Below, piece after piece: positions 52,212 through 63,548 of a stretch of DNA of 64,000 bases. The notes under the pieces are model-generated. The model had not been told where the DNA came from, made no database searches, and was given only the letters and a program-made list of their open reading frames with translations. Numbering within the stretch: the first letter of the stretch is position 1; each line of letters opens with the position of its first letter. A program made the position numbers and the translations under genes. This stretch comes from Crocinitomicaceae bacterium (GTDB lineage Bacteria > Bacteroidota > Bacteroidia > Flavobacteriales_D > Sanyastnellaceae): contig NZGF01000004.1 in assembly GCA_002690915.1 (NCBI GenBank), positions 1-64,000 on the forward strand. The letters are read 5' to 3'.

Positions 52212-53069
52212 ATGAGAGACATCTTTACCCTTACCCTCGTCTTTTTTCTAGGGCTGCATCATCTAGTGTTCTCTCAAACGGAGATCACCATTGACAACTA
52301 TTCGGTGAACCTCTACGGACAAGTGCAACTGTCAATCCAAGGCAGCACCGACAGTTATTACATTCTTCTCGCGGAACACGGTCCTGATTTCGAGTGGCCT
52401 GCATCGATCACAATGGGGTCAGATGGTACCATGGTGATATCCGCGCCCGGCGCAGCATATCCACTCGATCAGTACAGCATTTGGGAATACGACATAGCGG
52501 ATCCCGGTGACATCGATGGGGACGGAATAGACGATGTAACCGAATACAACACGATGCCCACGGACGCGCCGCTCAACTACGCCGAGGCCGTGGATTTTTA
52601 CGACGGAGCGACCTCCATTCCCGATGCCGAAACCTTCATGGCGCTGGCTACCGTCAACAATGTTGGATGGGCGCCCTTCTTAGACGACCAGCTCTACGTG
52701 AAGTTTGGCATACTCAACCGAGACAGTCCAAACCCGCAGGTTTACTTCATCAACAGCAACACCCACACAGTACACTATGGTTTCTGGTCGGCAATTGATG
52801 CGGATGTCACTGGTGACGATTCCTCCGGTGAGATCGTCTTTAACCCCACGCAAATCAACCCCAACGGGGTCATTGGTGGGTACTCTTTCAATTTCTCGTT
52901 TGGCGATGCCTACGACTTTGAAGCCACGCAACGAACGCATCAGTTGTTGATGGCCAACATGCCCTTCCTCCAAAACATCATGAACCATTTCATCGGCGAG
53001 AACGACGAGGACGATTACCTCGATGATTACGCGGATGACTACGAGGGCTCTGGGATTGAGGTGGTGCTG
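52212..53069 (+). repeat. 858-bp dispersed direct repeat, copy 1
   Basis: Gapless match to 62691-63548, with long near-identical stretches such as gatggtaccatggtgatatccgcgcccggcgcagcatatccactcgatcagtacagcatttgggaata. Confidence 0.92.
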
Positions 53070-54155: not shown

Positions 54156-54926
54156 TCACTCCACAAATACATACAGCAGCAGGTGCGTTTTTTTCTTTGA
54201 GTTTAGTTCGGAGGGTCCAGTGTAGATGTAGGATATTTCAAGGTCAGGATGCTCTTCCCTGAACGATGCAATGGTGGCTTCCAAAACGCGTTTGTCTGCG
54301 AGAAACGGAAAATCAAATTTGTAAACTCCCTCGACCACTTCAATTCCACGCACTGGTGCTTCTGCATTGAAAAATGTTCTGCTCGAGAAGCCTGAAACCG
54401 ACGCGCAAACAGCCAGTGTCAATGAACTCCCTAGCACCAATGCACGCGTCAGCATTCCCTTTTGGGGACGTTCACGTTTTTCATTTGGGTCCTGGTGCAA
54501 GGCATAAAATCCCCACCACGTTCCGATGAGGATGATCCAAAATAGGCTGTGCTCGAGCAATTGAAAACGATCACCAAAGACTTGATCTGCGATTGAAAAC
54601 AAGGTGAATAAGACCAGCGAAGTCAAAATCGCCCGAAAAAACCAACGGTCAGTCGCCTGCTCGTTGCGCTGCAGGTGTCGCACCATTGCCGCAACGTAAA
54701 AGGTGAAGTTACACGCCTCTAGCGCGCTTACGCCTGCAAGGGCTAGTGTTGGGAACAAGGAATCCTTTATTCCCAATGAACCAAAGAATTTGACAAAAAG
54801 GGCAAAGAAATCTTTACCCACCCACAGAAAGTGAACATCGGGAATGATTTTATCCAATACGCTCAGCCCCCAGAAGAGAGTCCAAAACGAAAGAATCGCC
54901 GTTTGAAGTATCCTACGCTCATTCAT
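54156..54926 (-). CDS. DoxX-like membrane protein, paralog B
   Basis: Four TM-like segments and a C-terminal domain YKFDFPFLADKRVLEATIASFREEHPDLEISYIYTGPSELNSKKK, homologous to the next gene. Confidence 0.65.
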   Translation of the reverse strand: MNERRILQTAILSFWTLFWGLSVLDKIIPDVHFLWVGKDFFALFVKFFGSLGIKDSLFPTLALAGVSALEACNFTFYVAAMVRHLQRNEQATDRWFFRAILTSLVLFTLFSIADQVFGDRFQLLEHSLFWIILIGTWWGFYALHQDPNEKRERPQKGMLTRALVLGSSLTLAVCASVSGFSSRTFFNAEAPVRGIEVVEGVYKFDFPFLADKRVLEATIASFREEHPDLEISYIYTGPSELNSKKKTHLLLYVFVE

Positions 54927-55773
54927 GGGTTGAGGAATTTTGTGCGTTTACTACCATCCGATCTTTGGTAGCGATATAAAAAATGAGTGCATCCGCCTTC
55001 TTCAATCGCAGCGGGTTGGGGGCCGTGTAGATGTGGTCAATGGACTTGTTGGGATATTCGCGTTGAAACTTAGCAAGGGTCTCCTCAAACACCTGGCTAC
55101 CTCCAAGAAATGGGAATGCAACCTTGAATAAATCCTCACCAACGGGCTCAGCGTCAAGTGCAGAAGTTCGACGGTAAAAGAAATCGTTGTTGTACTTAAA
55201 AATGGACCCCGTCGTGAAGGTCACGAGTCCAATTGCCAGTATCGCCACGCTTCTGCTCCCTCCATACCGCCCCGGACGCTTGGGCTGTTCGTCGGAGGAT
55301 AAATTACCCTGGCTCTCAAGTCGAACGTAAACCCCCCAAGAAGCGAGCGTGATAAACCAGAAAAGGGTGTGTTCCAGCAGTTCAAATCGGTCTCCAAACA
55401 AGTGATCACCGATCGAAAAAAACGTAAATGTCACCAGGGTAATGATGATACCGATGAAGCACCATGACCTCGCTTGATGTGCTCGCTTGCACGTAAAATT
55501 CCACAATGCCCCAGCAAAAAACACAAGGGCAAACACCTCAAGTGCTGCGGCAACATACAGCGCCAAATCAGCAATCCATGGCGACTCCAGTCCCGCGGAG
55601 GCGAAGTACTTCTGAAATTGGGCGAATCGATCGCGTCCAACCCATAAAAAAGTGCTTCCGCCGATGGCCTTATCGACGACATTAAACGACCAAAAGCAAG
55701 TCCAAAAAAGGAGAATCACGCCCCGAACGAGTCGATCCCGCGTCCACACTCCTGAATCTTGGTTAGTATTCAT
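54919..55773 (-). CDS. DoxX-like membrane protein, paralog A
   Basis: VVDKAIGGSTFLWVGRDRFAQFQKYFASAGLES..., C-terminal FKVAFPFLGGSQVFEETLAKFQREYPNKSIDHIYTAPNPLRLKKA; 8-bp overlap with paralog B. Confidence 0.65.
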   Translation of the reverse strand: MNTNQDSGVWTRDRLVRGVILLFWTCFWSFNVVDKAIGGSTFLWVGRDRFAQFQKYFASAGLESPWIADLALYVAAALEVFALVFFAGALWNFTCKRAHQARSWCFIGIIITLVTFTFFSIGDHLFGDRFELLEHTLFWFITLASWGVYVRLESQGNLSSDEQPKRPGRYGGSRSVAILAIGLVTFTTGSIFKYNNDFFYRRTSALDAEPVGEDLFKVAFPFLGGSQVFEETLAKFQREYPNKSIDHIYTAPNPLRLKKADALIFYIATKDRMVVNAQNSSTHE

Positions 55774-55918
55774 GATTGGAAGAAACTACATTCTTGCGGA
55801 TTGAAACACGTAAACAGGAACTAATTGTTCACCGCGCTTTCATAACGATTCTGTTTGCAGAATCCCTCCTCATTCTCTAAAAAGTAAAACTTGGACCTGG
55901 AATTGGTTAAAAAGGAAT

Positions 55919-56317
55919 TCAATCGAGCAGGCGCTCCCGAACCTCGGTATTCTCCAAATCGCATGTCCCCCAACGCCTTGATAGATCCATGCGTTGCCGA
56001 GCGATCCAGCCATAGCCGAAACCGGGGGTGAACGCAAGGAGCCATCTGTAGGGCCACTGAAGATAGGGTGCCAAAGCCCTCACTGCCGCAGCACCAACTT
56101 TGCACTCAGCGCCAGTACTGAAGACGAGACCTTCCAGGGGCGGAGTACGAAGTTCCACTGGAAGCAAATCGGCCGCAAGGTTGCTCTGCAACGATGCAAA
56201 ATGCAGCTTCGGCTCTCCACCCCTCCCACGTTCATGGAGAACCAACCACTTCACGCTTCGTTGACACAATCCACAGGGACCATCAAAAAAAACGATGGAT
56301 AGATGAGCAGGATTCAT
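55919..56317 (-). CDS. DCC-type thiol-disulfide oxidoreductase
   Basis: IVFFDGPCGLCQRSVKWLVLHERG (DxxCxxC) and C-terminal YGWIARQRMDLSRRWG. Confidence 0.85.
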   Translation of the reverse strand: MNPAHLSIVFFDGPCGLCQRSVKWLVLHERGRGGEPKLHFASLQSNLAADLLPVELRTPPLEGLVFSTGAECKVGAAAVRALAPYLQWPYRWLLAFTPGFGYGWIARQRMDLSRRWGTCDLENTEVRERLLD

Positions 56318-58773
56318 CGGACTGGTGCATACGTGATGGCAAGACGGATGTTAAATCCATCAGCTGGAAGAATCCCAGGACCCGGATAGGCCAAAGCTCT
56401 GCGTGTATAATACCGTGAATCGGTCAGGTTGTTGAGCTTAAGACCCAGTGAGAAGTCGCCTTGGCCAAATTGACGATCAAGACCAAAATCGATGATCGCA
56501 TATGCTGGAATCTCTCCATACACTGCGGTAGGCGTGTATTCGGCATTTGTGGCATCCGTGAATTGCTTTCCAGTAAGCGAGCCATGCAATTGTACAACCC
56601 ATTTATCTTTCTTGAGCCTTACGTTTCCCCGGCAGGTGTAATCAGGAACAAACTCGAGTTCATTCCCTTTAATCGGTGAGTCCCCAGCGATGTAAACTCC
56701 ATGCGCAATTCCGATACTCCCGCCGCAACGAATAAGGGCTTCATCGAGCACGAATTGCTTGGACACAGATAACTCTGCGCCCAAAGTCCGGGCATCGTTC
56801 AGGTTCTTTCGTAAGAAAATCGCCTTCTGGAAAATTGGAGGTGGGGCGGAGACAACGTCGGGTATCAGGCCAATTCGTTTCTTGTAAAACAGGCAATAAG
56901 CGCTCAAATCAACTTGGAAAGTTTCCGTCTTTTTTCGGATGCCCAGGTCAAAATTTGCTCCAAATTCATCGCTGATGTTCGGATCGATCACAACGCCTAA
57001 ACCCGTTAATTGGATATCAGAAAAATTAATGGCTCGGAAGTTTCTCACAGCATTGCCATAGACTTCCGTCGTGCCCTCCTTCCACGAAAAACCTATGCCA
57101 GGCAGGAATACGACTCTGTTCCTAGCATCACTTGTGCTGAAAATGGAATCTTCCAGAAAGTTCCCATTCAGATCAGTTGCTACCGCCCTATACTCACCAC
57201 TCATTGAGGTTCTTATCCACTCACAGCGAATGCCTGGAGTCAGCGAAAATCTTGGTGAAGCCCCAATGATGCCTTGAGCAAAGAGAGCTTCTTGAAAATT
57301 GGGGAAGTTGGTGTCACTGCTTTCGCCAACGAGTAGTTCGATAAATGTAAAATCTGAATCATCCGAATCATTTGCCCAGCCCTGGCGCATCCGATTATCA
57401 CCCCTAAGACCCTGACTACCAATTAGCAAAGCATTAAAACCACCGCTGACTTTATTCTTCCAACTTCGAGTTCCTCTTAAATCCCACGTAATTGAACTGA
57501 AATCCGCCGAGATCAAACCTCGTGCTCCCCCGAGATCAATCCGATCTGGAGTCCCCAAAAAGCCCAATGAATTTCGGTTCGCGATGACTGTGCTCAGATC
57601 TGCGTTCAGCTTCCATTGGCTGGATGCTTGGTAGTCTATCCCGACCCCGCCAACGAACCAATCTATGCTGAACCAATTTCGATTCCGTGTGCTCATTCTG
57701 GGACTTGAGACAAATAAAGCCTCTGTCAGGCCGCCCGGTTGTTGCTCCTCTCGCGTCATGTAGGAAACATGCTCTCGAATCGTCAAGGCATCGCCAATGT
57801 CTTGTATTCCATTGATATGAAACGTTGTGCTATTAAACCTTCCATTGCTTCTCCAGCCCGTGCCTGTTTTGTTGTCGATGGCAATAAAGAGGCCCGACGT
57901 GGCAGAAGTCGGAAGTGAGGCTTGCAGCGCAAAATGTTGGTTGCCCCTGTATTCCTTGTCCTCCGGGAGATAGGCGGTTAGGGACAAGAGACTTTCCAGA
58001 TCCACCCTGTCATTTCCATTCCAGCGCTTCATTTGAAAATTCAATAAGCCGCCAAGTTGAGAGCCGTATTGAAGCGCTGCCGCACCAGAAACGAGCGATA
58101 TGGCTTCAACCATTTGCAAGGGCGGGGTGTAATAGGCTTCAGGATAGCCCAAGGGATCTGCCGCAATCGGCACTCCGTCCTGTCGGATACTCAAGTAAGC
58201 TGAACGGTTTGGACTCAATCCGCGGACGCCAATGCCAAGTTGAAGTCCGGCCGCGTCACTCTCCCAAATATTGGCCCCCGGAATGGCCGAAAATATATTT
58301 CTGGCTTGAACCTCACCCGGCACGGATAGTACCGCTTCGGGTCGAATGGCCAAACTCTTCATCCCTCGGTATAGCCCTCCATTGGAAAGCGATGGCAGCC
58401 ATTCGGTAGGGCTTCGCTTGGATTCGACCAATGCCTGATTTACGGTGACGCTCAGTTCATTCAACACAATCACCAAGGGTGTACTTTGTGGCTCATCAAC
58501 TAATGTGTCCACGGCTCCATAACCAATGGCGCTTACAGAAAGGCGTACGGGATACTCCTCCAATTCGATTAAAAAGCTACCGTCATCAGCTCCGGAGATA
58601 ACCTCCTCAGCAGATTGTGTGGTCCAAACAATGTTTGCGCGTGGAATGGGGGAGTTGTCAGTGGCGATTGCGTACCCACGAAGCGCTTGTCCAAACAAGC
58701 AAGAAGAGCATAGGATCATGCACGTCAGGACGAAGGCTTTTTCCATAATCCAGCAATTACCAACCTCTTTCAT
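56314..58773 (-). CDS. TonB-dependent receptor with carboxypeptidase-like N-terminal domain
   Basis: Signal peptide; ALRGYAIATDNSPIPRANI; plug GANIWESDAAGLQLGIGVRGLSPNRSAYLSIRQDG; C-terminal NLTDSRYYTRRALAYPGPGILPADGFNIRLAITY. Alternative ATG at 58746. Confidence 0.92.
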   Translation of the reverse strand: MKEVGNCWIMEKAFVLTCMILCSSCLFGQALRGYAIATDNSPIPRANIVWTTQSAEEVISGADDGSFLIELEEYPVRLSVSAIGYGAVDTLVDEPQSTPLVIVLNELSVTVNQALVESKRSPTEWLPSLSNGGLYRGMKSLAIRPEAVLSVPGEVQARNIFSAIPGANIWESDAAGLQLGIGVRGLSPNRSAYLSIRQDGVPIAADPLGYPEAYYTPPLQMVEAISLVSGAAALQYGSQLGGLLNFQMKRWNGNDRVDLESLLSLTAYLPEDKEYRGNQHFALQASLPTSATSGLFIAIDNKTGTGWRSNGRFNSTTFHINGIQDIGDALTIREHVSYMTREEQQPGGLTEALFVSSPRMSTRNRNWFSIDWFVGGVGIDYQASSQWKLNADLSTVIANRNSLGFLGTPDRIDLGGARGLISADFSSITWDLRGTRSWKNKVSGGFNALLIGSQGLRGDNRMRQGWANDSDDSDFTFIELLVGESSDTNFPNFQEALFAQGIIGASPRFSLTPGIRCEWIRTSMSGEYRAVATDLNGNFLEDSIFSTSDARNRVVFLPGIGFSWKEGTTEVYGNAVRNFRAINFSDIQLTGLGVVIDPNISDEFGANFDLGIRKKTETFQVDLSAYCLFYKKRIGLIPDVVSAPPPIFQKAIFLRKNLNDARTLGAELSVSKQFVLDEALIRCGGSIGIAHGVYIAGDSPIKGNELEFVPDYTCRGNVRLKKDKWVVQLHGSLTGKQFTDATNAEYTPTAVYGEIPAYAIIDFGLDRQFGQGDFSLGLKLNNLTDSRYYTRRALAYPGPGILPADGFNIRLAITYAPVR

Positions 58774-60076
58774 CTCGTAAGTTTTCCCGCATTTCGTCCC
58801 ATTCGGCTGGTCTGATTACGGAGTCCAAGGGCAACACATAAGTACGCGAAGCCCAACTGGCTATTGGGGTCGACAAATCTTCAAATGGGTCAAGGTACAA
58901 CTGGGATCTTCTCCCATTCATCGATACCCACACCTCCGCTCGAACCCGCTCTTCACCCTCATTTTCAGCAGCTATCCTTCGGGCAACTTGACGCAATAGA
59001 TCTGGCTGGGTAGCGGTCATTTTTACTTGGTTCGGCGTCAAAATTTTATCGAGCTCAAAAATTCGTTCAACACCTGTCTCCTCTTTGACATAAAATGTCG
59101 CCATACCTGACTTCTCCATGAGCATCACCCGCCATCCAAAACGGTATCCCGTTTCGTGCCAAAACGGATTGCCAGGATAGACAAGGTGCCGCCAAGGGAA
59201 AATCACTTGGAAAACAAATAACACGGCGATTGCTGCGAATTGCCAACCCATTCTAGCATGGGAAACCAATGGGGCAGCTTGGGCTTTAGCAAGGGGCAAT
59301 CCAAGGCGGTCCCACAGCGAATAATGCCAATCATCTCGGAAGAATACGGTCGTAGAAAGGATCATGACCCATGGAAAAATACCGATTGGGAAGAGTACCC
59401 AAGTGAGCACATGAAAAACAACCAAAATCGGATAAAACCAAGGACGCAATTTGTCACTAAAAAGAGCAAATGGAGCGAAGAGATCGAATGCAGCACCCGC
59501 CCAGCTAAATGCATAAGCAATCCATCTCTCCGCAAGCAATGGACCAATTAAAGGCAGACTGCTGTGCTGAGGCAACCAGATTGAAAGGGGAAGCGCCTCA
59601 ATTAACCAGTCTGTGTGAAGCTTAGCCAGTCCGGCGAAAAAGTACACCAACGCCAGCAAGCCTTGAAAGGCCAACTTCATAAAAAGGGGGACCATGGGCC
59701 GATCGGAACGAGCAGGTATCAGAATGAGCAGAAAAGCAACAAGCGAAACGAAATAGTAGTGGTTGAGGTAATTGCACTTATCCAATAACTCAACGTACGT
59801 GAAACAGATAAAGAAAATAAACGCCCCCAATCGCGCCACTCGATCGAAAAACATCAAACAAGAACCGGCAAGCATACCTGAAAAAAGAAGAATGGCTCCT
59901 TCCACAGTTGGACGAGGGAGCCATTCAAATCCATCAAAAGGGAACAGCCAAGTAGGCTGCAAAATTTGAGTCTCAACCCAGCCGTATCCAATGAATCGAA
60001 CCGTGCTGCAGAGGGTAAGCACCGCAAACAGCCTCCTCAAGGTAACCAAAGGGGCGGCCGAGACAAGCCTAGTCAC
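58757..60076 (-). CDS. HTTM / vitamin-K-dependent gamma-carboxylase-like membrane protein
   Basis: NHYYFVSLVAFLLILIPA, LVYFFAGLAKLHTDWLIEALPLSIWL, FDLFAPFALF, FHVLTWVLFPIGIFPWVMI. Start appears to be GTG. Confidence 0.83.
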   Translation of the reverse strand: MTRLVSAAPLVTLRRLFAVLTLCSTVRFIGYGWVETQILQPTWLFPFDGFEWLPRPTVEGAILLFSGMLAGSCLMFFDRVARLGAFIFFICFTYVELLDKCNYLNHYYFVSLVAFLLILIPARSDRPMVPLFMKLAFQGLLALVYFFAGLAKLHTDWLIEALPLSIWLPQHSSLPLIGPLLAERWIAYAFSWAGAAFDLFAPFALFSDKLRPWFYPILVVFHVLTWVLFPIGIFPWVMILSTTVFFRDDWHYSLWDRLGLPLAKAQAAPLVSHARMGWQFAAIAVLFVFQVIFPWRHLVYPGNPFWHETGYRFGWRVMLMEKSGMATFYVKEETGVERIFELDKILTPNQVKMTATQPDLLRQVARRIAAENEGEERVRAEVWVSMNGRRSQLYLDPFEDLSTPIASWASRTYVLPLDSVIRPAEWDEMRENLRDERGW

Positions 60077-61151
60077 CGTCTGTATCTTGGTAAGTCACTA
60101 GAACACCGAGAGCAGACATCATATCCACTTTTAAAAGGATAACCAAGGCCTGTAATTCGCTGTATACATCGAGAGCTGCAGGTTGGTTGGAAACCACATA
60201 CTCAGACAACGGATCATCCAATGTTAGGACTGCCGCCTGAGCCGCTGCAATTTGAGCTTTTATTTCCGCATCAAGCTCTGTGCCGTAGGATACATCACCT
60301 AACGATTGAAGATAATCGTCAAGACCTATACCCTCTCCTCCCAAATAGATTCGTTCAGTCGCCAACATGGCCTCTTGGAGTAAGTCAACACTCCAATCAC
60401 CGGCATGGTATGCCTCTGCCAACTGCGGGGCAGGGTTACCCGAAAATGAAAATACACCTGCTGGAAGGCCTAATTTACCCTTACGCACATTTCCTTCGTA
60501 CGTTCGGTTAAAGGCATTGAGCATCATTCCCAGACCACTTCCAATATCTGTATCCGTCCGACTAACAAAGTCATCCCTGTATTCGGTAACCCAGCTGTCG
60601 TGGACAGCCTGAAGTTCGTCATGTAAATGGTTTGCCAAAAAAGTGGCATGTTGCAGCCTATCCGCGTTCCATTCTCCTTTGTGCAATAAATAATCCAATG
60701 CCGGCAATCCTGTGCGATCCAGTGTACTTGGGAGGCCCGGAACAACATTGCCGTTCATCACATCTTCGTCCACGTCCAGTGAATCACAGGGATGGGAGTT
60801 CGTTGTACCCAAGAGGTTTCGGCCCACCGCGGGACCAAAATCAAAAAGAGCGACCGCTTGCCATTTCATCGCACACTCCTTCAAGGCCGCGCGGGATTGT
60901 TCTAAGGTTCCATCCCAAAGTGCGATACAAAGATTTTCCGCAGAAACCACCGCTTCCGAGTATGCAGGAATAATAAGATTATCGGCAGCATTGATCAAGA
61001 AGGCTTCTCGGTCAAAAGAATCTCCGGGCTCATCTTGCTCATCTGGATTGCATCCAGCTAGGACAAGGACCATGAACAAAAGGAAAAACTGGAGCCCCAT
61101 AAAGGAGCCCCAGTTCATTCCAATGTTCTCTTTGAGTATGCTCCTACCCAT
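60069..61151 (-). CDS. Imelysin family lipoprotein
   Basis: Lipobox LVLAGCN; LKECAMKWQAVALFDFGPAVGRNLLG; TLDRTGLPALDYLLHKGEW. Confidence 0.88.
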   Translation of the reverse strand: MGRSILKENIGMNWGSFMGLQFFLLFMVLVLAGCNPDEQDEPGDSFDREAFLINAADNLIIPAYSEAVVSAENLCIALWDGTLEQSRAALKECAMKWQAVALFDFGPAVGRNLLGTTNSHPCDSLDVDEDVMNGNVVPGLPSTLDRTGLPALDYLLHKGEWNADRLQHATFLANHLHDELQAVHDSWVTEYRDDFVSRTDTDIGSGLGMMLNAFNRTYEGNVRKGKLGLPAGVFSFSGNPAPQLAEAYHAGDWSVDLLQEAMLATERIYLGGEGIGLDDYLQSLGDVSYGTELDAEIKAQIAAAQAAVLTLDDPLSEYVVSNQPAALDVYSELQALVILLKVDMMSALGVLVTYQDTDGD

Positions 61152-62356
61152 TACAATTGCTCAGCTAAGTCGGTCAAGCCCGTCGCCGCTGCAAGTTCGT
61201 CACGAACTTCGGTCAGCATTGCTGTTGTTACTGCGTAGAAATCGTCACCTAAGTCTTCGAGCAAGTGTGCAACCTCATCTGAATCGACTGAGGTGTTTTC
61301 TCCAAACTGAAGTCCCCACATGAACGCTTTTGCCTCGCTCAAAGCGTGATTTCTGAGTGCGTCGTCGGCGAAGTTGGAAATTGCAGAGTTAAAGTAGTGG
61401 ATTGCTGTGCCAGCAGCAGCCAACTCCAATTCAGTTCTGATGATCTCAATTTGCTGGTCACGAACCGTCATGTTGTCTGCGGAAATCGCAGCTCGTCCCA
61501 AACGGAAAGCCGCAGAGATTTTGGTCCCGCTTTGCAAAAGATCTTCTCGACCATCGGCGTACTTACCCCAAAAACGGTCTGTGCCAGAATTCGGATAATC
61601 CACTGCCGTGGTGAAGTAACCATAGCCTTCATCCCAGTGATGTTCCATTTTCGTGTAGTACTTGCCATTTGCAGGGTCCTCAGCCGTTGTATTGTCCACG
61701 TCCATTTTGTCGCTTCCCAAATACACCACTGAGATGTTGTAGTAGAAGCAAGCGCCCATCAACCCTTTTTCAATCAGTTGGGTCCATTCCTGCCCTTGGG
61801 CACTTTGCAAATATTGCTTCGCAGGATTGGTTGTGGAGAGAACCACACCAGTGACACCAGCAGAGCCTGCACCTGAACCATCACTTGCTGCAGCTACCTC
61901 ATCCATCCACGTTTCGAAAACATTCGTGAACTCACTATCTCCACCAACAGTCTTATTCTTCAATTGCTTCGAAGAACCTGTCATGCCAAGGTCTTCCTCA
62001 TCATCCCATGTGTAGTCCTCATTGGCGTACATGTCTTTCAGTACGTCAGCGTCCACGGATACGCCTTCATCGTTTGCTGTTTTTAGGTATGACGACATCT
62101 CAGACAGCATGTTCAAACGCTGGTGCTGCCCGCTGTAGCTCACGGTGTTGTTTCCGTCAGCGTCGGTGAACACATAAGTGTCAGGTGCGGCAATAGCGTA
62201 GGAGCAAGATCCATCGTCTGTATCTGCATCTGAATCATAATTATCGGCTGCTGGGTCAGTGCATCCTTCCGTGTCTCGATTGCACGAAGTCAGGGCGAAA
62301 GTAGCCACTAGGGCAAAGACAAAAATGCCTTTTAAAGAGGAGAACGTCGTGTTCAT
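61151..62356 (-). CDS. DUF4856 lipoprotein with one N-terminal GCTD repeat
   Basis: Lipobox ATFALTSCN, then EGCTDPAADNYDSDADTDDGSC; YSGQHQRLNMLSEMSSYLKTAND; start trimmed to ATG at 62356. Confidence 0.8.
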   Translation of the reverse strand: MNTTFSSLKGIFVFALVATFALTSCNRDTEGCTDPAADNYDSDADTDDGSCSYAIAAPDTYVFTDADGNNTVSYSGQHQRLNMLSEMSSYLKTANDEGVSVDADVLKDMYANEDYTWDDEEDLGMTGSSKQLKNKTVGGDSEFTNVFETWMDEVAAASDGSGAGSAGVTGVVLSTTNPAKQYLQSAQGQEWTQLIEKGLMGACFYYNISVVYLGSDKMDVDNTTAEDPANGKYYTKMEHHWDEGYGYFTTAVDYPNSGTDRFWGKYADGREDLLQSGTKISAAFRLGRAAISADNMTVRDQQIEIIRTELELAAAGTAIHYFNSAISNFADDALRNHALSEAKAFMWGLQFGENTSVDSDEVAHLLEDLGDDFYAVTTAMLTEVRDELAAATGLTDLAEQL

Positions 62357-62690
62357 TTTCCAGGTTTTGTAAATTAAAAGCGAGTGCAAATCTCATTTGT
62401 CGAATCGAGTTGACCAATACCGTAAATCCGGTAATTTAGAACTGGTCTAAATAAAGAAAGGAAATGCGACCGAACCATTTCTTTCTTCAGCCAGTATTGA
62501 ACGTTGGTTTTCGAAATCACCGACGGGTGTGATGCCTCAATCAAACCGTCTATGCAGGGGCGGTAGTTTCACCAAAACAACCAGAAACAGCACCTCTAAC
62601 GGCGCAACTAAACAAAAATCGCACTCGTTGTGGTAATATTGGTGGTCTCCATCTTTCAAAAACACTGCAGTTGACCCCAATCTGTCTGAA

Positions 62691-63548
62691 ATGAAAAATA
62701 TTTCACACCTCACCATCGTCTTTTTTCTAGGATTATGCGGTTCACTGTTCGCTCAAACAGAAGTCACCATTGACAACTATTCGGTGAACCTCTACGGTCA
62801 AGTGCAGCTTTCGATTCAGGGCAGCACCGACAACTACTACATCCTCGAGGCCCAGCACAGCGCCGATTTCGAGTGGCCTGCATCGATCACTATGGGGTCA
62901 GATGGTACCATGGTGATATCCGCGCCCGGCGCAGCATATCCACTCGATCAGTACAGCATTTGGGAATATGACATAGCGGATCCCGGTGACATCGATGGGG
63001 ACGGAATAGACGATGTAACCGAATACAACACAGTGCCCACGGACGCGCCGCTCAACTACGCCGAGGCTGTCGATTTTTACGACGGTGTGACTTCCATCCC
63101 AGATGCCGAAACCTTCATGGCGCTGGCGGTAGTTAACAATGTTGGATGGGCTCCATTCTTGGACGACCAGCTCTACGTGAAGTTTGGCATACTCAACCGA
63201 GACAGCCCAAACCCGCAGGTTTACTTCATCAACAGCAACACCCACACCATTCACCCGGCTTTTTGGACTGCAATCAATGCGGAGGTTATCGGTGACGATT
63301 CCTCCGGTGAGATCGTCTTTAACCCCACGCAAATCAACCCCAACGGGGTCATCGGTGGGTACTCTTTCAATTTCTCGTTTGGCGATGCCTACGACTTTGA
63401 AGCCACACAGCGCACCTATCAATTGTTGATGGCCAATATGCCCTTCCTCCAAAACAACATGAACCATTTCATCGGCGAGAACGACGAGGACGATTACCTC
63501 GATGATTACGCGGCTGACTACGAAGGCTCTGGGATTGATGTTGTGCTG
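62691..63548 (+). repeat. 858-bp dispersed direct repeat, copy 2
   Basis: Gapless partner of 52212-53069. Confidence 0.92.

What the first reader, a model, noticed from the sequence alone, without database searches (positions are those of the whole stretch)
54156..62356. Overlapping cassette: DUF4856 - imelysin - HTTM - TonB receptor - DCC - two DoxX-like paralogs
Seven minus-strand genes overlap by 1, 8, 17, 4 and 8 bp, with a single ~145-bp gap, so they are very probably one operon. It joins two surface lipoproteins (imelysins are often iron-linked), an outer-membrane receptor, a gamma-carboxylase-like HTTM protein, a CxxC oxidoreductase and two membrane proteins. This fits uptake plus redox or covalent processing of a metal or metal complex. 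The combined function is, to my knowledge, uncharacterised.
Basis: partly seen in the sequence, partly recalled or inferred. Interest (0 to 1): 0.7.

Follow-up and report, generated by a model that had tools for sequence, protein, structure and literature searches.

The report
Iron-starvation operon with vitamin-K-type carboxylase
This is an iron-controlled set of bacterial surface-uptake genes, conserved across the Bacteroidota, whose core includes a close relative of the human vitamin-K-dependent blood-clotting enzyme (γ-glutamyl carboxylase) with its active site intact, which suggests that these bacteria may use clotting-factor chemistry to help capture iron.

Summary
In detail: seven minus-strand genes with exactly the stated overlaps and one 145-bp gap. 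Only the first four form a conserved system. DUF4856 lipoprotein, imelysin lipoprotein, HTTM/VKGC enzyme and TonB receptor occur adjacent, in order and on one strand in 70 of 80 Bacteroidota loci. Starting from DUF4856 instead, 31 of 33 hits in 198 genomes have VKGC directly downstream. DCC and the two "DoxX-like" genes are a genus-level add-on; the DoxX-like pair also occurs away from the cassette and matches no Pfam family.

New evidence: (i) a perfect Fur box (ATTTAGA-N5-TCTAAAT) sits upstream of DUF4856, the only perfect match in the genome; 85 of 106 homologous promoters carry it against 12 of 790 control genes. (ii) A published Riemerella anatipestifer RNA-seq study lists the TonB receptor, "vitamin K-dependent gamma-carboxylase" and imelysin as induced by iron restriction and putatively Fur-regulated. 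(iii) The HTTM protein is homologous to human GGCX, and the catalytic base and most of the vitamin-K and glutamate pocket are invariant in 115 homologues.

Best reading: a Fur-regulated TonB-dependent iron-acquisition operon carrying a menaquinol-dependent γ-glutamyl-carboxylase-type enzyme, probably modifying a cassette lipoprotein. The modification step is inferred. Novelty: new variant of the known imelysin–redox-enzyme–TonB iron loci.

The parts
62434..62452 (-). Fur box ATTTAGACCAGTTCTAAAT, about 78 bp upstream of the DUF4856 ATG
   Evidence: 0 mismatches to the arms of the Riemerella Fur consensus ATTTAGAATTATTCTAAAT; only perfect match in window and genome; conserved in 85/106 homologous promoters vs 12/790 control genes
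61151..62356 (-). DUF4856 lipoprotein (core gene 1)
   Evidence: PF16148 1.7e-46; lipobox Cys25; AF2 pLDDT 91.9, all-helical, no PDB fold match; conserved E201/K208, H250-x2-D253-E254, H348-x3-E352 in 412-aa numbering
60069..61151 (-). Imelysin (M75) lipoprotein, GxPxxD variant of GxHxxE (core gene 2)
   Evidence: PF09375 4.3e-19; family profile hits solved imelysins 3n8u, 4ecg, 3pf0; motif counts
58757..60076 (-). HTTM + VKGC lumenal-domain membrane enzyme, GGCX homologue (core gene 3)
   Evidence: PF05090 2.3e-54, PF22777 5.2e-37; human GGCX 8e-20; K152, H106, N105, W157, F221, F234 and others = GGCX K218, H160, N159, W223, F286, F299, invariant in 115 homologues
56314..58773 (-). TonB-dependent receptor with N-terminal carboxypeptidase-regulatory-like domain (core gene 4)
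   Evidence: PF00593 2.6e-25, PF07715 5.1e-8; nearest solved structure FecA 8e-16
55919..56317 (-). DCC1-like thiol-disulfide oxidoreductase, DGPCGLC motif (genus-level accessory)
   Evidence: PF04134 3e-12; same position only in genus-mates G007, G008, G012, G013
54919..55773 (-). Multi-TM protein DX1 (accessory, family unknown)
   Evidence: no Pfam family above cut-off; paralogue of DX2 at 37%; pair also found away from the cassette in G002, G005, G009, G011, G016
54156..54926 (-). Multi-TM protein DX2 (accessory, family unknown)
   Evidence: as DX1

Best explanation
The core is a four-gene, Fur-repressed operon for TonB-dependent iron acquisition. Under iron starvation Fur leaves the box at 62434-62452. 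DUF4856 and imelysin are made as outer-membrane lipoproteins that bind iron or an iron complex and hand it to the FecA-like TonB receptor. The third protein is a cytoplasmic-membrane enzyme of the vitamin-K-dependent gamma-glutamyl carboxylase (GGCX) type. It uses menaquinol (the organism has MenA), O2 and CO2, and most likely gamma-carboxylates one or more glutamates of the exported lipoproteins as they pass the membrane, creating or tuning a malonate-like metal ligand. DCC and the DX pair are a lineage-specific addition, perhaps helping thiol or quinone redox. Shown: gene order and its conservation; the Fur box; published iron/Fur response of the orthologous genes; conserved GGCX active site; lipoprotein signals. 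Inferred: that the cargo is iron; that the enzyme is active in these bacteria; that its substrate is a cassette lipoprotein; that it makes Gla rather than only oxidising quinol.
For: Conserved order in 70/80 loci with short or negative gaps. DUF4856-first searches give the same result: 31/33 hits have VKGC about 2.1 kb downstream on the same strand, and genome co-occurrence is 31 both, 2 DUF4856 only, 15 VKGC only, 150 neither, p 1e-22; 19 of 22 DUF4856 loci in relatives carry all four genes. Fur box perfect in the window, unique in the genome, enriched 85/106 vs 12/790 and vs 21/2120 shuffles; Fur encoded in the genome. R. anatipestifer RAYM_09779 (TBDR), 09784 (VKGC), 09789 (imelysin) and 09794 (hypothetical) rise 2.1-3.1 in the paper's ratio under iron restriction and are listed as putatively Fur-regulated (PMC5609570 Table 4). 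Human GGCX residues shown to act in catalysis or vitamin-K/Glu binding (K218, N159, H160, W223, A214, G259, F286, F294, F299, Y395, M402; PMC12589487) are 90-100% conserved in 115 cassette homologues. MenA present. In L078, L085 and L092 the same HTTM-TBDR genes follow the classical imelysin-DHOR-imelysin iron cluster.
Against: No gamma-carboxylated bacterial protein was found in the papers searched here. The bacterial enzyme lacks the human C-terminal ~250 residues, and K217, N158 and R436, which help bind or couple the substrate in human GGCX, are not conserved. No Gla-domain-like Glu cluster was seen in DUF4856 or imelysin. VKOR is absent from this (85% complete) genome and does not co-occur with VKGC across 198 genomes (9/46 vs 32/152), so an epoxide-recycling partner is unknown. 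A DUF4856-imelysin-TBDR locus without HTTM exists (L030), and one genome has DUF4856 alone (L036). Imelysins tested in vitro did not bind ferric iron or heme (PMC3143127).
Confidence: 0.5

Rival explanations
1. Same iron operon, but the HTTM/VKGC protein works as a quinol-linked redox enzyme rather than a carboxylase: menaquinol oxidation or epoxidation supplies redox chemistry to the iron complex or the lipoproteins, taking the place of the di-haem peroxidase that partners imelysins elsewhere.
For: Imelysins are almost always linked to an EfeB/DUF1111 redox enzyme (PMC3143127); here no DHOR gene is in the genome and the VKGC gene sits beside the imelysin. Vitamin-K pocket conserved, whereas several protein-substrate contacts of human GGCX are not.
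Against: The glutamate-coordinating N159, H160 and Y395 are also kept, which a pure quinol oxidase would not need. DHOR and VKGC coexist in L078, L085 and L092, so replacement is not strict.
Confidence: 0.22
2. Same iron operon, but the enzyme modifies a small peptide or metallophore (the TonB receptor's cargo) rather than the lipoproteins.
For: The TBDR is FecA-like, a class that takes carboxylate-rich chelates; gamma-carboxylation would build such a chelator.
Against: No conserved flanking gene for a peptide, NRPS or exporter was found beyond the four genes.
Confidence: 0.12
3. The cassette takes up another Fur-regulated cargo (another metal or cofactor complex); the iron link is only regulatory.
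For: No transport or binding data exist; ferric iron and heme did not stabilise two imelysins in vitro (PMC3143127).
Against: Induction by iron restriction in Riemerella, Fur-type box throughout the family, iron roles reported for imelysin loci in other phyla.
Confidence: 0.1
4. The seven genes are one functional machine in which DCC and the DX pair recycle the quinone epoxide or disulfides needed by the carboxylase.
For: Adjacent and same-strand in the window, in G013 and, across a contig break, in G007; VKOR is missing from the genome.
Against: Almost all other cassettes lack DCC and DX; DX pairs occur away from the cassette in five genus-mates beside unrelated genes; the 145-bp gap precedes DX1.
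Confidence: 0.06

Closest known systems
Fur-regulated imelysin operons (P. aeruginosa PA4370-4373, V. cholerae VC1264-1266, Leptospira lruB-DHOR-imelysin beside a TBDR)
   Same: Fur/iron control, imelysin lipoproteins, an oxidative enzyme between or beside them, a TonB receptor nearby in Leptospira (PMC3143127, PMC13066512)
   Different: Here the oxidative enzyme is a GGCX homologue instead of a di-haem DHOR, one imelysin is replaced by DUF4856, and the TBDR is part of the fixed gene order
R. anatipestifer RAYM_09779-09794
   Same: TBDR, 'vitamin K-dependent gamma-carboxylase' and imelysin as adjacent locus tags, iron-repressed, putative Fur regulon (PMC5609570)
   Different: Only listed in a table; in a related R. 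anatipestifer locus (L072) an extra gene lies between DUF4856 and imelysin, so whether RAYM_09794 is DUF4856 is not settled
Human vitamin-K-dependent gamma-glutamyl carboxylase (GGCX)
   Same: HTTM and lumenal domain, catalytic Lys218, His160/Asn159 Glu site, vitamin-K pocket
   Different: 439 vs 758 residues; lacks the C-terminal region and several substrate-coupling residues; no VKOR partner
EfeUOB
   Same: Imelysin-type protein plus oxidative enzyme in iron uptake
   Different: No EfeU permease, cupredoxin domain or EfeB here; outer-membrane receptor instead

Membership tests
Vitamin-K-dependent gamma-glutamyl carboxylase (GGCX/VKGC) | HTTM transmembrane domain plus VKGC lumenal domain | tested here: met
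   PF05090 2.3e-54 and PF22777 5.2e-37; human GGCX 8e-20 over 6-423
Vitamin-K-dependent gamma-glutamyl carboxylase (GGCX/VKGC) | Catalytic Lys218, Glu-site Asn159/His160/Tyr395, vitamin-K pocket | tested here: met
   K152, N105, H106, Y311, W157, F221, F229, F234, A148, G194, M318; 90-100% conserved in 115 homologues; M401 is Val
Vitamin-K-dependent gamma-glutamyl carboxylase (GGCX/VKGC) | C-terminal lumenal region beyond human residue ~510 | tested here: not met
   protein ends at 439 aa; alignment stops at human ~510 of 758
Vitamin-K-dependent gamma-glutamyl carboxylase (GGCX/VKGC) | Carboxylates protein Glu to Gla with quinol epoxidation | not testable with these tools
   needs biochemistry or mass spectrometry
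Imelysin superfamily (M75) | Sequence homology to imelysins | tested here: met
   PF09375; profile hits 3n8u 1e-34, 4ecg 1e-23, 3pf0 2e-22
Imelysin superfamily (M75) | GxHxxE motif | tested here: not met
   GxPxxD: G 119/120, Pro 84/120, Asp 95/120; the His-to-Pro change is like the IPPA/PA4372 family
DUF4856 as an imelysin-fold relative | Detectable profile or fold similarity to imelysin | tested here: not met
   hhalign aligns only the signal peptide region; Foldseek of a pLDDT 91.9 model finds no PDB match; hmmsearch vs PDB no hit
Fur-regulated iron operon | Fur box in promoter | tested here: met
Fur-regulated iron operon | Iron/Fur-dependent expression in this organism | not testable with these tools
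   shown only for orthologous genes in R. anatipestifer (PMC5609570)
Imelysin-DHOR-imelysin operon | Di-haem oxidoreductase (PF06537) in the operon | tested here: not met
   none in the window cassette; none in the 85%-complete genome
DoxX family (for DX1/DX2) | Pfam DoxX/DoxD/MauE match | tested here: not met
   AF2 model low confidence
DCC1-like | Pfam match and DxxCxxC motif | tested here: met
   PF04134 3e-12, DGPCGLC
FecA ferric-dicitrate receptor | NCBIfam FecA equivalog cut-off | tested here: not met
   78 bits vs cut-off 1100; a TBDR of related type only

The most novel reading that the evidence does not exclude
A bacterial vitamin-K (menaquinol)-dependent carboxylase makes gamma-carboxyglutamate on surface lipoproteins under iron starvation, so that Gla, known for calcium binding in clotting factors, serves as an iron-capture ligand in a TonB system found throughout much of the Bacteroidota.
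Probability: 0.3. Interest if true: 0.92.

Novelty: new variant of a known kind. Interest (0 to 1): 0.68.

Why it matters
What bacterial relatives of the human clotting carboxylase do is, to my knowledge, an open question. A conserved four-gene, Fur-controlled context with two candidate substrates makes it directly testable: delete the enzyme, starve for iron, look for Gla on two named lipoproteins. If confirmed, it would place vitamin-K-dependent carboxylation in bacterial iron uptake and suggest an ancestral role for the enzyme. It would also add a third oxidative partner (after EfeB and DHOR) to imelysin loci, and give a first context for DUF4856, a family with no solved structure found here and no paper in the searched library.

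Tried and rejected
DUF4856 as a hidden imelysin: rejected as unproven. DX1/DX2 as DoxX: no family support; AF2 from two sequences was poor, and Foldseek's H-NOX hits (E 0.007, TM 0.16-0.23) are meaningless for such a model. VKOR as obligatory partner: no co-occurrence. Conserved flanking genes that might name the cargo: none beyond the four; the commonest neighbours (10 of 79 loci) are a hydroxymethylglutaryl-CoA-lyase-like and a LysE-like gene upstream, by eye. A second, lower-scoring class of bacterial VKGC sits beside housekeeping genes (RibF, seryl-tRNA synthetase and others), is not in this cassette and gave no functional clue. Literature searches for DUF4856 and for imelysin + HTTM gave nothing. 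Gene calls in loci L149 and L150 (high-GC) failed with my simple caller and were not used. The Fur box was not found near DUF4856 in R. anatipestifer L072 (best 5 mismatches), so that species' box position remains unclear.
Full report
OBSERVATION. The seven minus-strand ORFs are present with the stated coordinates, overlaps (1, 8, 17, 4 and 8 bp) and a 145-bp gap between DCC and DX1. Both first proteins are lipoproteins by lipobox.

CONSERVATION. A scan of public genomes with the HTTM protein gave 80 loci, all Bacteroidota in the broad sense from their titles: Flavobacteriales, Cytophagales, Chitinophagales, and Fodinibius. In 70 of 80 the order DUF4856-imelysin-HTTM-TBDR is complete, adjacent and on one strand; several exceptions are contig ends or split genes. 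Median gaps are 50, 6 and -4 bp, so this looks translationally coupled. Because that set was chosen by HTTM, I repeated the test from DUF4856. In 198 genomes spread over the phylum, 31 of 33 DUF4856 hits have a VKGC lumenal domain about 2.1 kb downstream on the same strand, and 19 of 22 loci from relatives hold all four genes. Of the VKGC hits without a Pfam DUF4856 neighbour, many have a divergent DUF4856 or at least an imelysin and TBDR beside them. Exceptions exist: L030 lacks HTTM and L036 has DUF4856 alone. Related genomes are not independent, so p-values are indicative only.

ACCESSORY GENES. DCC follows the TBDR in G008 and G012. DCC-DX1-DX2 follow it in G013 and, across a contig break, in G007. 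The DX pair occurs in eight of 22 genus genomes. In five of them it lies in a different context: next to a GH30-like enzyme (by eye) and, in several, a fatty-acid-desaturase-like gene. It is therefore not part of the core.

REGULATION. The published Riemerella Fur consensus is ATTTAGAATTATTCTAAAT (PMC5609570). The window has ATTTAGACCAGTTCTAAAT at 62434-62452, both arms perfect. It is the only perfect match in the 2.39-Mb genome and the only match within two mismatches in the window. Within 300 bp upstream of DUF4856, 85 of 106 distinct loci have at most two mismatches, against 12 of 790 control genes and 21 of 2120 shuffles (first version). The genome encodes a Fur-family protein. In R. anatipestifer YM, TBDR, VKGC, imelysin and a hypothetical protein with consecutive locus tags rise 2.1-3.1 in the paper's ratio under iron restriction and are listed as putative Fur targets (PMC5609570 Table 4). 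In another R. anatipestifer strain (L072) an additional T9SS-type gene (by eye) separates DUF4856 from imelysin, so the identity of the fourth listed gene is uncertain.

THE ENZYME. The HTTM protein aligns with human GGCX over residues 60-510 (E 8e-20). PMC12589487 describes K218 as the base that deprotonates vitamin K hydroquinone, N159/H160/Y395 as Glu-coordinating, and F286/F294/F299/W223/A214/G259/M401 as lining the quinone site. In 115 cassette homologues K218, N159, H160, W223, A214, F286 and F299 are invariant, F294 and G259 98-99%, Y395 90% (rest Phe); M401 is Val throughout. Human K217, N158 and R436, which concern substrate coupling, are not conserved. The likely cofactor is the respiratory menaquinone: MenA is present. 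VKOR is absent from this incomplete genome and uncorrelated with VKGC in the phylum, so epoxide recycling, if any, uses something else.

THE LIPOPROTEINS. The imelysin belongs to the M75 superfamily but has GxPxxD instead of GxHxxE, like the IPPA/PA4372 branch in losing the His. DUF4856 gives a confident all-helical AF2 model with no PDB neighbour and invariant or near-invariant polar residues (E201, K208, H250, D253, E254, H348, E352 in 412-aa numbering), compatible with a metal site but not proving one. No profile similarity to imelysin beyond the signal peptide was found.

LINK TO KNOWN SYSTEMS. Imelysins are almost always linked to an EfeB/DUF1111 oxidoreductase and are Fur- or iron-controlled in Pseudomonas and Leptospira (PMC3143127; PMC7567364; PMC13066512). 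In L085, L092 and L078 the same HTTM-TBDR genes are preceded by imelysin-DHOR-imelysin. This is direct evidence that the VKGC cassette and the classical cluster belong together. In the window genome no DHOR was found.

MECHANISM. Shown: co-conservation, Fur box, active-site conservation, export signals. Inferred: iron cargo, enzyme activity, lipoprotein as substrate. I judge 'Fur-controlled TonB iron-acquisition operon' at about 0.85, 'enzyme is a functional menaquinol-dependent GGCX-type enzyme' at about 0.7, and 'it γ-carboxylates a cassette lipoprotein' at about 0.3-0.35. The stated confidence of 0.5 refers to the whole best explanation read loosely.

CONTEXT. The cassette has lower GC3 than the rest of the window (0.46-0.54 vs 0.587 ± 0.039) and sits between two ~90% identical copies (841 bp aligned) of a T9SS-type gene spaced 10,479 bp apart. 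Within the genus it is patchy. This suggests mobility of the whole block, not tested further.

Noticed in passing
52229-53069 and 62708-63548: The cassette lies between two ~90% identical direct copies (841 bp aligned, spacing 10,479 bp) of a T9SS-type surface-protein gene; the left copy is read as two overlapping ORFs. With the low GC3 of the cassette this suggests insertion or duplication at this site.
   Followed up: partly
L078:3288-13837, L085:6117-13752, L092:5956-13825: Imelysin-DHOR-imelysin clusters directly precede (DUF4856-imelysin-)HTTM-TBDR, joining the classical and the new arrangement in one locus.
   Followed up: partly
L128, L132, L134, L135, L140: A second class of bacterial VKGC homologues with conserved K218/H160/N159 sits beside a ~308-aa gene, identified as RibF (FAD synthetase/riboflavin kinase) in L128, with seryl-tRNA synthetase downstream there; no substrate is apparent.
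   Followed up: partly
L175:6730-8309, L176:6289-7922, L177:5323-6908, L178:6245-7872, L179:2243-3825: DX1-DX2 membrane-protein pairs occur outside the cassette in the same genus, beside a GH30-like enzyme and, in several, a fatty-acid-desaturase-like gene.
   Followed up: partly
L072:7999-8806: In Riemerella anatipestifer an extra T9SS-type gene separates DUF4856 from imelysin, and no clear Fur box precedes DUF4856.
   Followed up: no
L030: A DUF4856-imelysin-TBDR locus without the HTTM gene; a natural case for comparing the lipoproteins' conserved glutamates with and without the enzyme.
   Followed up: no
60069-60110: The cassette imelysins end in a conserved C-terminal DxDGD tail (D346 and D348 invariant in alignment A3).
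   Followed up: no
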